This document shows positions 4,022-61,345 of a stretch of DNA of 64,000 nt, one piece after another (position 1 is the stretch's first letter; every line of letters starts with the position of its first letter). The notes under the pieces are model-generated. The model ran no database searches and was not told the origin of the DNA. It saw only the letters and a list, made by a program, of their open reading frames with translations. This DNA comes from Clostridium sp. 'deep sea' (GTDB lineage Bacteria > Bacillota > UBA994 > PWPR01), in NCBI RefSeq assembly GCF_014931565.1, contig NZ_CP063353.1, forward strand, positions 806,001 to 870,000, written 5' to 3'. Both the position numbers and the translations under genes were made by a program.

Positions 4022-4080
4022 CTACTGACAAACAATTTTGACCAAATAAATCTTCCCCTACCCACATTAGGGTTTACTTG

Positions 4081-4626
4081 CGAAATTTTGTGGCAACGCT
4101 GAGACTATATTGACCTTAAACTTGTGAGAGTTTCATAATTGCTCGCTGTCAAGGCGCAGTAAATTTTGTGGACGAACATAATACGAGTAGTTTATGTTCT
4201 GTCACAAAATTTACTGTAACACCGAGAGCAACCAATTGTGGAACTCGAGCTTAAAATAATTTCAGAATTGATTGCTGTCAAGGCGACCAAATTTTTGCAG
4301 GCGAATGTAATACGAGTAGTATGCATTTGCTTGCGAAAATTTGTGGCAACACCGAGAACTTATTGACCTTAAACTTGTGAGAGTTTCAGAATTGCTCGCT
4401 GTCAAGGCGCAGTAAATTTTGTGGACGAACATAATACGAATAGTATATGTTTGGTCACAAAATTTACTGCAACGCCGAGAGCAACCAATTGTGGAACTCG
4501 AGCTTAAAATAATTTCAGAATTGATTGCTGTCAAGGCGACCAAATTTTTGCAGGCGAATGTAATACGAGTAGTATGCATTTGCTTGCGAAAATTTGTGGC
4601 AACGCCGAGAGCGATTAATTGTGGAA
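4081..4626. repeat. 253-bp tandem repeat made of paired hairpins
   Basis: The gap between the Nif3-like gene and the polymerase gene contains two near-identical 253-bp units (4081-4333, 4334-4586) and the start of a third (4587-4626) that reaches the polymerase stop codon. Each unit is itself two related half-units. The first half has a long hairpin with a perfect 14-bp outer stem (4157-4216 and 4410-4469). The second has a related imperfect hairpin (about 4287-4345 and 4540-4598). Both hairpin tips carry the core TACGA(G/A)TAGT, and both halves share GCTGTCAAGGCG before and CCGAGA after the stem. The frames through it look like shadows. Function is unknown; it could be a non-autonomous mobile repeat or a structured RNA. 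Confidence 0.9.
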
Positions 4627-6420
4627 TTATTTTTCGGACCAGTCTTGTGCTACTAACACCTCCACCTCAATCGGTACACTCTTAATATACACCTCACCAG
4701 CAGCCACCATCTCTTGTCTTACAATCTTTGCTAATATATTCGCATCATTCTCGTTGCATTCAACTACTATTTCATCGTGTACACAATTAGTGAGTTTACC
4801 AGAGGTACCTTTTAACCTATCAAACAATCTTATTAATGCCATTTTTAAAATATCGGCACCGGTGCCTTGAACTGGCGTATTGTATAGCTCAGATACAAAT
4901 CTTTGATCTGTTTTATAGTATCTTTTTCTGCCACTTAGTGTTTCGTTGTACTGCATATTATCGCCATTATTAGCTACTTTTTTATGCCAACTTGCTATAC
5001 CTTTATAGGTTTTAAAAAAAGATGCCCTTATATACTCGGCTTCTGCAAGGTTCATGTCTACACCATAACTTGATTTAGCATACTTCACCAAACCTCGTGA
5101 ACCCATGCCAAATACCAAACCAAAGTTTACAGCTTTTGCCTTTTGGCGATCTATTTTTGTGACATCTTTTTCTTGTTTATTAGATACTATTGAGGCCGTA
5201 ATTCTATGAATATCTTTACCTTCCACAAATGCCTTAATCATTTGTTGATCTTGACTTATCTCACTAATGATCCGCAACTCTACTTGGCTGTAATCGGCAA
5301 TAATTAGTTTTTTATGGGGTGGCGCTACTATTATTTTTCTAAAGTCACCTCGGGGTATGTTTTGTACATTAGGTCCTCCACAGCTCATTCGCCCGCTTGA
5401 GGCACCTATTTGAGAAAAGTTGGCATGCACCCTACCTGTTACAAGATTAGTTCGCTCTTGTAAAGGCCTTAACGCACTACTAATTATTCTTACTATGCTT
5501 TTATGACGTTGCAAAAGTTCAATTTCGGGATACTTTAAAGCATATTCTTTTAAGGCAGCCTCTCGAGTACTGGTAACTTGTATTCCCTTTTTGGAGAGAG
5601 CTTTTTCTATTTGTTGTGGTGACTGTAGATTTATTTCTCCAAAAAAATTTTTAATTTGTAACTTAATTTGCTGTTTTTCATTTAACAAATCACTATATTT
5701 TTGCTTTAATGCTAGTTTATCAACTTTTATACCATTATACATCATAGATGCCATGGCTTTAGTGCATTTAAACTCTAAATCAGCAACATAAACTAGCTTT
5801 TGCTCTACTATTTTTTTTATTAGCTTTTGCCTAAGATCCAATAAAACTGCAGCATCTTTTGCAGCATAATCTAGTTGAAGTGAGCTTAATAAATCAGAGC
5901 TCCAGTTACTGGTTTGCATTGTCTTACTTAAATAACAGCCTAACTCTCTTTCAGTAACTGCTGCCAAGTTGTGTCGGTAACCATAACCATTGTAAACAAG
6001 TTTACTGGCCAACATGGTATCAAAGATTGTACCAAAAGGAATATGATATTTTTCACTTAAAAATTTCAGCTCAAACACTGCATTATGAATTATTTTAACA
6101 GGTTTTTTGGCAGCAAATAGCTCCGTTAAAATTGCTATGTTAGGTACATGTTCTACATCTATTATATATACAGGCATACTATCAGCAGCCAATTGAATGA
6201 GTCTAATGCTATCACTATGGGGGTCTAAGCCACTTGTTTCTATATCTAACCCAATGGCTTTAGTTGTTAACAAACTGGGCAATACTTGTTTTACTTCCTG
6301 TTCAGTTCTTAACAGTTTGTAATTTGGGCATTTATAGGGTGGCAAATCTATTTTACTTACAATATTAATATCAGCAAAGCCAAGTTGCCCAGTTTCGGTA
6401 ATATTAATTGATTTGTCCAT
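4627..6420 (-). CDS. DNA polymerase family A with 3'-5' exonuclease, no 5' nuclease domain
   Basis: This 597-residue protein begins with a DnaQ-like exonuclease domain: DIET at 59-62, then IHNAVFELKFL, then YAAKDA, giving the expected acidic residues. The family A palm and fingers follow, with motif A DYSQVELRI, motif B RQKAKAVNFGLVFGMG and motif C VHDEIVVE. All catalytic residues appear intact. It is much shorter than classical Pol I (about 900 residues) because the N-terminal flap nuclease is missing; comparable stand-alone enzymes occur in phages and in some Gram-positive genomes. AAGGGGG precedes the ATG. The 3' end abuts the tandem hairpin repeat. Whether it is a second polymerase beside a full polA cannot be told from this window. 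Confidence 0.9.
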   Translation of the reverse strand: MDKSINITETGQLGFADINIVSKIDLPPYKCPNYKLLRTEQEVKQVLPSLLTTKAIGLDIETSGLDPHSDSIRLIQLAADSMPVYIIDVEHVPNIAILTELFAAKKPVKIIHNAVFELKFLSEKYHIPFGTIFDTMLASKLVYNGYGYRHNLAAVTERELGCYLSKTMQTSNWSSDLLSSLQLDYAAKDAAVLLDLRQKLIKKIVEQKLVYVADLEFKCTKAMASMMYNGIKVDKLALKQKYSDLLNEKQQIKLQIKNFFGEINLQSPQQIEKALSKKGIQVTSTREAALKEYALKYPEIELLQRHKSIVRIISSALRPLQERTNLVTGRVHANFSQIGASSGRMSCGGPNVQNIPRGDFRKIIVAPPHKKLIIADYSQVELRIISEISQDQQMIKAFVEGKDIHRITASIVSNKQEKDVTKIDRQKAKAVNFGLVFGMGSRGLVKYAKSSYGVDMNLAEAEYIRASFFKTYKGIASWHKKVANNGDNMQYNETLSGRKRYYKTDQRFVSELYNTPVQGTGADILKMALIRLFDRLKGTSGKLTNCVHDEIVVECNENDANILAKIVRQEMVAAGEVYIKSVPIEVEVLVAQDWSEK

Positions 6421-51122: not shown

Positions 51123-51914
51123 AATAGTTTCACTATACTTTTTTAGCGCATATCTAACCTTAGCTACACTCATACCTAATAGTTTAGCAATTTTGCTATA
51201 CGAGTATCCCGTTTGCTCATATAAAATATATATTAGTTCATTAAACAAACACTTATTAGTTTTATACTCATTTAAGATATCTACATTATGTTCTCGATTA
51301 AAATCATTTAAAGTCTGCCAAAACAATTCTTGTATATTTTTAGCAATTTGTTCTTTTGTATCTATAAAATAATCTGCAATCTCTTCTTCTTGATGAAAGT
51401 TAATATATCTTTTTTTGTTGTTTCTAAAATAATCCATGTAAAATTCTTTTAAAGATTTACTTATATATTTCTCTTTATAAATAAATTCAAAATAGCTACT
51501 AAACTTATATTCTTCTATTTTCTCTACAAGACAGGCTTTAGTAGGATTTCTGTGAACATATCTAACAACTTGTTTAAGTGAATTATCATCCTGTATAACC
51601 TCACTTCTAAATCTATCTCCAAATACAGGTCCTACTCTATCATTTGCATTATTATAGTATTTAGCATATTTAAGAAGAACAATTTTAATAAATCTAGAGA
51701 TATTACTTAACTCAGCTTTAACTACTAAATGAGCGTGGTTGCCCATAATGCACCAAGCTAATAACCCTATATAATTTAATTCTACTTGTTCATTTATGTA
51801 TTTAAGTAAAACATATTTGTGCTGATCTGTATTAAAAACTGCCTCTTTATTAATTCCTCTTATCATTAAATGATAAAAGTCAGTAGAGCTTACTTTACGT
51901 GCACATCTTGGCAT
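51117..51914 (-). CDS. REP-associated tyrosine transposase (RAYT, Y1 family)
   Basis: The 265-residue protein starts MPRCARKVSSTDFYHLMIRG, with GGAGGTG upstream at 51912-51914; a longer frame from 52049 runs back into the palindrome. Y1 motifs are the HUH-like HAHLVVK in IMGNHAHLVVK and the tyrosine in KQVVRYVHRNPTKA. A C-terminal helix-turn-helix (SYSKIAKLLGMSVAKVRYAL) is typical for RAYTs of Firmicutes. Palindromes in inverted orientation flank the gene. RAYTs process REP-like sequences rather than moving as ordinary insertion sequences. Confidence 0.92.
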   Translation of the reverse strand: MPRCARKVSSTDFYHLMIRGINKEAVFNTDQHKYVLLKYINEQVELNYIGLLAWCIMGNHAHLVVKAELSNISRFIKIVLLKYAKYYNNANDRVGPVFGDRFRSEVIQDDNSLKQVVRYVHRNPTKACLVEKIEEYKFSSYFEFIYKEKYISKSLKEFYMDYFRNNKKRYINFHQEEEIADYFIDTKEQIAKNIQELFWQTLNDFNREHNVDILNEYKTNKCLFNELIYILYEQTGYSYSKIAKLLGMSVAKVRYALKKYSETIF

Positions 51915-60777: not shown

Positions 60778-61330
60778 ACTAAAGTCCATTTCCACATATT
60801 TTTTGTTAACAAATTCTTATTTAAGCATTCACTTTATATTGACTAGATTCTACTTTAATGCCTTTTATCTTTATAATTTTTTTAAATCAGGTATGTTGAT
60901 TACTCTACATAAATATTGTATAAAAAAACATTAAACTTAACTTATCTTACATATAGGTATTAAAGTTGATTAAATTTTTTACCGTTTTAGTTAAATCTTC
61001 ATGTATAATTATCTTTAGAAGATTCATATACATTTTTGTAATTTTCCTATTACAGGATACTATCCCCTTTCTAATATTTTCATAACATATCTATTACACA
61101 CTGTCATTCCAATTCCTGCCTTTAAAACAAAAAAAAGAGCCACCTAAAGGTATCTCTCTTAATTTTTGAATATCATATGACATTCTAATAAGAATAACCA
61201 ACTAAACGCTTCATTATTCCGTGGCTTACAGAATTGTTTCAGATTAAGGAATAACAAAAATCATCAAAATCATAATTTAAACTAATATATGATTTTGATG
61301 ATTTTTGCGTAAGACGCAGAGCTGGAGCAA
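60778..61330. other. About 550-base gap with terminator and hairpin
   Basis: No supported gene. It holds the presumed cassette promoter region (none clear by eye), the terminator at 61131-61163 and the hairpin element at about 61210-61345. The rest is AT-rich with short broken frames. Confidence 0.5.
61131..61163 (-). terminator. Terminator downstream of the methyltransferase
   Basis: AGAGATACC and GGTGGCTCT pair with a 4-base loop (two mismatches) and end in TTTTTTTT on the minus strand. Confidence 0.75.
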
Positions 61331-61345
61331 TTATGAAAGCGTCCG
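61210..61345. repeat. Large hairpin element related to the 4081-4626 repeat
   Basis: AAAAATCATCAAAATCAT and its exact complement form an 18-bp perfect stem with a 15-base loop (about 61255-61306). Read on the minus strand, the flank TTTCATAATTGCTC is identical over 14 bases to the flank at 4130-4143. The other side has CAATTCTGTAA where the repeat has CAATTGTGGAA. It lies across the 3' end of the methyltransferase gene. Confidence 0.65.

What the first reader, a model, noticed from the sequence alone, without database searches (positions are those of the whole stretch)
4081..4626. 253-bp tandem higher-order repeat built from alternating hairpins
Two full units and part of a third, each with two related hairpins sharing TACGA(G/A)TAGT tips and GTCAAGGCG/CCGAGA flanks. 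The A-type stem is 14 bp perfect and shows compensatory-looking variation only in the tip. It abuts the polymerase stop. It could be a non-autonomous mobile element or a structured RNA family.
Basis: seen in the sequence. Interest (0 to 1): 0.6.

Follow-up and report, generated by a model that had tools for sequence, protein, structure and literature searches.

The report
Hairpin repeats inserted behind stop codons
The repeated hairpins beside the DNA polymerase gene are one local cluster of a genus-specific, genome-wide family of small hairpin elements that are placed, nearly always in one direction, right behind the stop codons of genes, which makes them probable mobile elements with an unusual choice of landing site.

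Summary
In detail: a 253-bp unit repeated 2.1 times (4073-4626), each unit holding two related hairpins. It is not unique. A covariance model from 7 copies finds about 43 copies in this 3.83-Mb genome, one more in this window (61225-61338), and over 80 in its only held congener (MAG PL25a_bin.78). It finds none in 59 other relatives, plasmids or phages. Over 65 copies the hairpin has very strong covariation: 94.5% of cells paired against about 40% when slid, and 27 of 35 pairs with double changes. The strand that folds well is the one antisense to the neighbouring gene.

Copies start right behind a stop codon (38 of 54 arrays in the congener, 19 of 37 here), in one orientation. That stop is TAG in 26 of 36 genes, against 28% elsewhere. 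Most orthologues in the other species lack the element and have another stop, mostly TAA; the window's own locus is empty in the congener.

Best reading: a small non-autonomous mobile palindromic element, in the class of bcr1, EFAR and REP, with unusually exact placement at stop codons. Its mobilising enzyme was not found: no Y1 transposase carries it, and the congener shows no reverse transcriptase or integron integrase.

The parts
4073..4626 (+). whole tandem array: 2.1 copies of a 253-bp unit, two related hairpins per unit
   Evidence: TRF and the repeat finder; fold z-score -14.4 on + strand
4073..4106 (+). tail of a fifth, truncated B-type hairpin (end coordinate approximate)
   Evidence: register with the 253-bp repeat
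4130..4243 (+). hairpin element copy W1 (A-type)
   Evidence: model R1, 105.9 bits
4259..4367 (+). hairpin element copy W2 (B-type; its 3' outer arm is different from W4)
   Evidence: model R1, 72.3 bits
4383..4496 (+). hairpin element copy W3 (A-type)
   Evidence: model R1, 117.6 bits; found independently by model R2 built only from type-2 copies elsewhere, E = 1e-13
4512..4626 (+). hairpin element copy W4 (B-type), ends at the base before the polymerase stop codon
   Evidence: model R1, 113.2 bits; model R2, E = 1.8e-12
4627..6420 (-). DNA polymerase I-like gene (597 aa) whose TAA stop codon abuts the array; its orthologue in G001 ends in TGA with no element behind it
   Evidence: ORF; orthologue comparison
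61225..61338 (+). another copy of the element in the same window, at the 3' end of a minus-strand gene
   Evidence: model R1, 70.8 bits; context

Best explanation
The array is a cluster of a genus-specific, non-autonomous mobile palindromic element of about 170 bp. SHOWN: the unit is a long imperfect hairpin with variable stems kept paired by double changes, a conserved asymmetric internal loop (gene-sense CTCnGCGT opposite CCTTGAT) and a conserved tip (ATACTnnnnnGTAT). It is repeated dozens of times per genome, often head to tail, lies in intergenic DNA immediately behind stop codons in one orientation, and is missing at most orthologous sites in the sister species. INFERRED: it spreads by being recognised as a folded single strand. 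The strand antisense to the upstream gene is the likely substrate, because its mismatches are the tolerated G.T/G.U type and it folds better in nearly every copy. The insertion joins the element to the TA of a stop codon (TA|G..., ending ...GTCGTTTA), or to the T-run of a terminator, so TAA stops become TAG. New copies joining at the same place would give the arrays; later duplication gave the 253-bp period here. The enzyme is supplied in trans and is not identified. For the host the element is probably near-neutral, a long 3'-UTR hairpin that may protect or end transcripts.
For: Copies elsewhere in the genome and in the congener, none in 59 other relatives. Two independent models recover the window copies. 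Covariation on a structure-blind alignment of 65 copies: 94.5% of cells paired against 39-41% slid; 283 double-change cells against 80 shuffled. 5' end at a sense stop codon: 38/54 arrays in G001 (null 15%, p = 9e-20) and 19/37 in G000 (null 11%, p = 9e-10); other end near an opposing stop 3/54 and 2/37. Stop codon TAG 26/36 against 82/293 in G001 (p = 5e-7) and 10/19 against 19/113 in G000 (p = 0.0014). Orthologues: most of the pairs compared lack the element in the other species, two loci share it, and the window locus is empty in G001. Units abut exactly at G001:C86 6719-6888/6889-7060/7061-7168. Antisense strand folds better in 62/65 copies, -45.1 against -36.5 kcal/mol; A.C 57 against G.U 23 in the sense reading.
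Against: No autonomous partner or mobilising enzyme was found: none of 13 Y1 transposases in the two genomes has a copy within about 1.5 kb. No target-site duplication could be proven, because the two species are too diverged to align intergenic DNA base by base. No transposition was observed. Array polarity, newest copy next to the stop, was not significant (11:9). The antisense-fold tests use related copies, so the cells are not independent.
Confidence: 0.72

Rival explanations
1. A structured 3'-UTR RNA, such as a lineage-specific terminator or mRNA-stabilising hairpin, kept by selection for its RNA function rather than by mobility.
For: Very strong covariation, position right behind stop codons in gene-sense orientation, no terminator between stop and element in the loci read.
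Against: The mRNA-sense strand folds clearly worse than its complement. Restricted to one genus, with most orthologous genes lacking it. Conserved unpaired arms and exact head-to-tail copies look like propagation. Stems are A+T-rich without a classic G+C stem plus U-run.
Confidence: 0.2
2. A REP-like element mobilised by a RAYT/IS200-type Y1 transposase.
For: Y1 transposases exist in both genomes (9 and 4); the substrate looks like a one-strand hairpin; REPs are also found under 20 bp from gene 3' ends (PMC3733652).
Against: The unit is 169-172 bp, not 20-40 bp; no Y1 gene has the element nearby.
Confidence: 0.25
3. An attC-like recombination site moved by a tyrosine recombinase: a bottom-strand hairpin just behind a stop codon.
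For: Same geometry: directly behind stop codons, fixed orientation, the strand antisense to the gene folds, variable tip with conserved unpaired bases.
Against: No integron integrase over the curated cut-off; no inverted RYYYAAC...GTTRRRY core pair at the ends of the units read; the neighbours are syntenic chromosomal genes, not cassettes.
Confidence: 0.1
4. A retro-copied RNA joined to mRNA 3' ends, or primed at a nick behind the stop codon.
For: Sites are stop codons or terminator T-runs in sense orientation; the 5' junction is variable and G-rich while the 3' end is fixed.
Against: No RVT_1 reverse transcriptase in G001, where the element is most abundant (the MAG is 94% complete).
Confidence: 0.07

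Closest known systems
bcr1 repeat of the Bacillus cereus group
   Same: 100-400 bp class of genus-group-specific intergenic repeats, tens of copies per genome, MITE-like, mobile features, often part of UTRs (PMC6542083, PMC3446304)
   Different: bcr1 mobility is linked to a TTTAT motif; no exact stop-codon placement, TAG bias or one-strand fold is described in the passages read; no sequence comparison with bcr1 was made here
EFAR elements of Enterococcus faecalis
   Same: listed among bacterial MITEs (PMC3733652); from memory: about 170 bp, folded, integrating into pre-existing stem-loops and leaving stem remnants at the ends, which resembles the locus-specific outer stems of copies lacking canonical arms (z = -3.5)
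   Different: from memory EFAR is a two-hairpin L-shape; the original paper is not in the held library, so this is a lead and not a test
REP sequences (GTAG/CGTC families) with RAYT transposases
   Same: extragenic palindromes, many copies, most under 20 bp from ORF 3' ends (PMC3733652)
   Different: 20-40 bp, often head-head dimers; here 169-172 bp, direct arrays, no transposase gene flanked by the element
SPRITE, RUP and BOX repeats of Streptococcus pneumoniae
   Same: short intergenic hairpin repeats, clustered, some terminator-like (PMC10969869)
   Different: different hosts; stop-codon anchoring is not described in the passages read
integron attC sites
   Same: works alike in geometry: hairpin on the antisense strand directly behind a stop codon (attC features from general knowledge)
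   Different: no core boxes seen, no IntI, neighbours are not cassettes

Membership tests
small non-autonomous palindromic mobile repeats (broad class) | many dispersed copies in one lineage | tested here: met
   about 43 in G000, over 80 in G001, none in 59 others
small non-autonomous palindromic mobile repeats (broad class) | no coding capacity | tested here: met
   frames broken by stops and by units that are not multiples of three
small non-autonomous palindromic mobile repeats (broad class) | presence/absence at orthologous sites | tested here: met
   empty sites in both directions
MITE | terminal inverted repeats shared with a parent transposon | tested here: inconclusive
   arms pair only in part; no flanking transposase found
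MITE | target-site duplication | tested here: inconclusive
   junctions TA|G and ...TTTA fit a TA target, but no base-level empty site exists
REP/RAYT | 20-40 bp palindrome with GTAG or CGTC tag | tested here: not met
   unit is 169-172 bp; CGTC occurs near the 3' end only as part of TTTCGTCGTTTA
REP/RAYT | Y1 transposase gene flanked by the repeat | tested here: not met
   0 hits around 13 Y1 genes
integron attC | inverted RYYYAAC / GTTRRRY core sites | tested here: not met
   unit ends read; G001 ends are GTTTA
integron attC | integron integrase in the genome | tested here: not met
   TIGR02249: 0 of 3 genomes over the cut-off
bcr1 | sequence homology to bcr1 | not tested
   no bcr1 sequence was fetched; genome contigs pattern scan found only PL25a_bin.78
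EFAR | integration into target stem-loops with stem remnants at the ends | tested here: inconclusive
   locus-specific outer stems in 19 copies without canonical arms (z = -3.5), not in canonical ones
known Rfam RNA family | score at or above a curated threshold | tested here: not met
   only far-below-threshold microRNA hits
retroelement | reverse transcriptase available | tested here: not met
   none in G001 (MAG 94% complete)

The most novel reading that the evidence does not exclude
The element is targeted to translation stop codons as such: an enzyme acting on the folded antisense strand joins the element to the TA of a stop codon, turning TAA into TAG, and does so again to build arrays. 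That would be a class of mobile DNA whose landing site is the end of the reading frame rather than a sequence motif.
Probability: 0.25. Interest if true: 0.8.

Novelty: new variant of a known kind. Interest (0 to 1): 0.55.

Why it matters
Small palindromic repeats are common and most have no known engine. This family adds three sharp features that narrow the mechanism: exact stop-codon adjacency in one orientation, a shift of the stop codon to TAG, and a fold kept on the strand antisense to the gene. Together they suggest a single-strand substrate and a target linked to gene ends, and strand-specific binding and cutting tests could check this directly. It also shows how a 3'-UTR architecture can spread over a genome without touching proteins.

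Tried and rejected
Protein-coding reading: some copies read as a repeated peptide (VELTNYQLGTTWLTEL...), but frames are broken by stops and the units are not multiples of three; rejected. Replication-strand targeting: copies are mostly oriented against the leading strand (about 30:10), but the orientation is explained better by the adjacent gene. Reverse transcription: no RT in G001. Integron: no integrase. RAYT: no flanking copies. Array polarity: 11:9, not significant. A short pattern in viral contigs gave 120+ hits, uninformative because the pattern was too loose. Consensus in plasmids and phages: no match. An explicit search for a longer element with shared ends showed only the short unit and its fragments.

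Full report
OBSERVATION. The tandem repeat is present as described. The array spans 4073-4626: two full 253-bp units at 94-95% identity plus part of a third. It carries four complete hairpins, W1-W4, and a truncated fifth. The + strand of this stretch folds far better than shuffled sequence (z = -14.4) and better than the - strand. The claim of compensatory variation inside the window is not borne out: W2 and W4 share the same hairpin sequence, and W1 and W3 differ only in the loop and the 3' arm.

A DISPERSED FAMILY. The genome holding the window (G000, 3.83 Mb, one contig) has related hairpins elsewhere. Seven copies gave a covariance model, R1. R1 finds about 43 distinct copies in G000, including one at window 61225-61338. 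Of 61 genomes searched only G000 and its single held congener G001 have it. G001 corresponds to MAG PL25a_bin.78, the only named genome hit by an exact motif scan of 84,980 species. G001 has over 80 copies. A second model, R2, built from a diverged type-2 subfamily that excludes the window copies, recovers the window copies at E = 1e-13 to 5e-7 and again hits only the two congeners among 41 genomes. Plasmid and phage collections have no match, and Rfam has none.

ANATOMY. Read in the sense of the upstream gene, the unit of the congener is roughly GGTTATTGCTTCTTTCCACGGAGGC-TCCCATAATT...CTCGGCGT...[variable stem]...ATACTACTCGTAT...[variable stem]...CCTTGATCTAG..CAATTCTGTGAGCCACGTTATGCCTTACGTTTCGTCGTTTA, 169-172 bp. 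Units abut exactly at G001:C86 6719-6888/6889-7060/7061-7168. On a structure-blind MAFFT alignment of 65 copies, 94.5% of cells pair. Sliding one arm by 1-3 columns drops this to 39-41%. 27 of 35 pairs show double changes, and 283 cells change on both sides against 80 in shuffles. Stems vary freely while pairing is kept, and the internal loop and tip are conserved.

WHICH STRAND FOLDS. Departures from Watson-Crick pairs in the gene-sense reading are A.C rather than G.U (57:23; 17 columns against 4, p = 0.007), whereas unpaired columns lean the other way. The antisense strand is more stable in 62 of 65 copies with RNA energies and in 65 of 65 with DNA energies, and its consensus fold energy is -35.4 against -14.7. 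The selected fold therefore appears to be that of the strand complementary to the mRNA. Copies are related, so these p-values are optimistic.

PLACEMENT. In G001 38 of 54 arrays, and in G000 19 of 37, begin directly behind a stop codon of a gene read in the same direction. The null fractions of intergenic bases that close to a stop are 15% and 11% (p = 9e-20 and 9e-10). The other end lies near an opposing stop in only 3 and 2 arrays. A few of these ORFs run into the element and use a stop inside it. Several remaining copies sit right behind terminator T-runs (L086, L090, L018, L089, L121, L053). The stop codon at the element is TAG in 26 of 36 genes of G001 against 82 of 293 elsewhere (p = 5e-7), and in 10 of 19 against 19 of 113 in G000 (p = 0.0014). 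Tandem junctions read ...GTCGTTTA|G..., so TA|G is the shared junction.

EMPTY SITES. For the G001 genes with an element whose G000 orthologue was found, most orthologues have no element and end mostly in TAA, often followed by a plain terminator; two loci share the element. In the other direction most G000 sites tested are empty or hold a different hairpin in G001, one type-2 locus (secF-like gene) is shared, and the window's own polymerase locus is empty in G001, ending in TGA. C-termini mostly end at the same position, so the genes are not truncated by the insertion.

ENGINE. Y1 (IS200/RAYT-type) transposases exist in both genomes, 9 and 4, but none has a copy within about 1.5 kb. No integron integrase passes the cut-off. 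G001 has no RVT_1 reverse transcriptase. The mobilising enzyme is therefore unknown. Copies lacking the canonical arms have locus-specific outer stems (z = -3.5 against re-paired flanks), as if they lay inside an older stem-loop. This recalls, from memory, the reported integration of EFAR elements into stem-loops.

VERDICT. The thing works like a small non-autonomous mobile palindromic repeat, and belongs to that broad class by the features tested. It cannot be filed as REP/RAYT (length and flanking transposase not met) or attC (core boxes and integrase not met); bcr1 and EFAR membership were not decided. Proximity to gene 3' ends is known for REPs (PMC3733652), so that alone is not new. The exact and oriented stop-codon junction with its TAG shift, together with the antisense-strand fold, is the unusual part.

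Noticed in passing
L016 (G000:C1:2738000-2745000) and L013 around 1600-1640: An IS3-like element (ends TGAACTGAYCC...) is inserted in the loop of one hairpin copy in L016, and an IS fragment sits at the same loop position of a copy in L013, as if the hairpin loop were an IS target, like IS1397 in REPs (from memory).
   Followed up: partly
window 51546-51875 (-): A Y1 (IS200-like/RAYT-type) transposase domain in an ORF of 317 aa; no copy of the element next to it.
   Followed up: partly
G000:C1:1143187-1144134: A six-unit direct array of the type-2 subfamily, spaced about 165 bp, behind a secF-like gene; the orthologous gene in G001 (L337) also carries a type-2 array.
   Followed up: partly
G001 loci such as L081, L084, L118: Other minisatellite-like intergenic repeats (GGCAATTGGTTGGCAATTG...) follow many arrays.
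   Followed up: no
G000 near 5S rRNA genes (L027, L031): Type-2-like hairpins sit beside 5S rRNA sequence in two places.
   Followed up: no
G000 whole contig: GC skew places the origin near 2.65-2.75 Mb and the terminus near 0.41-0.6 Mb; the two congeners differ strongly in G+C, about 31% and 41% in samples.
   Followed up: partly
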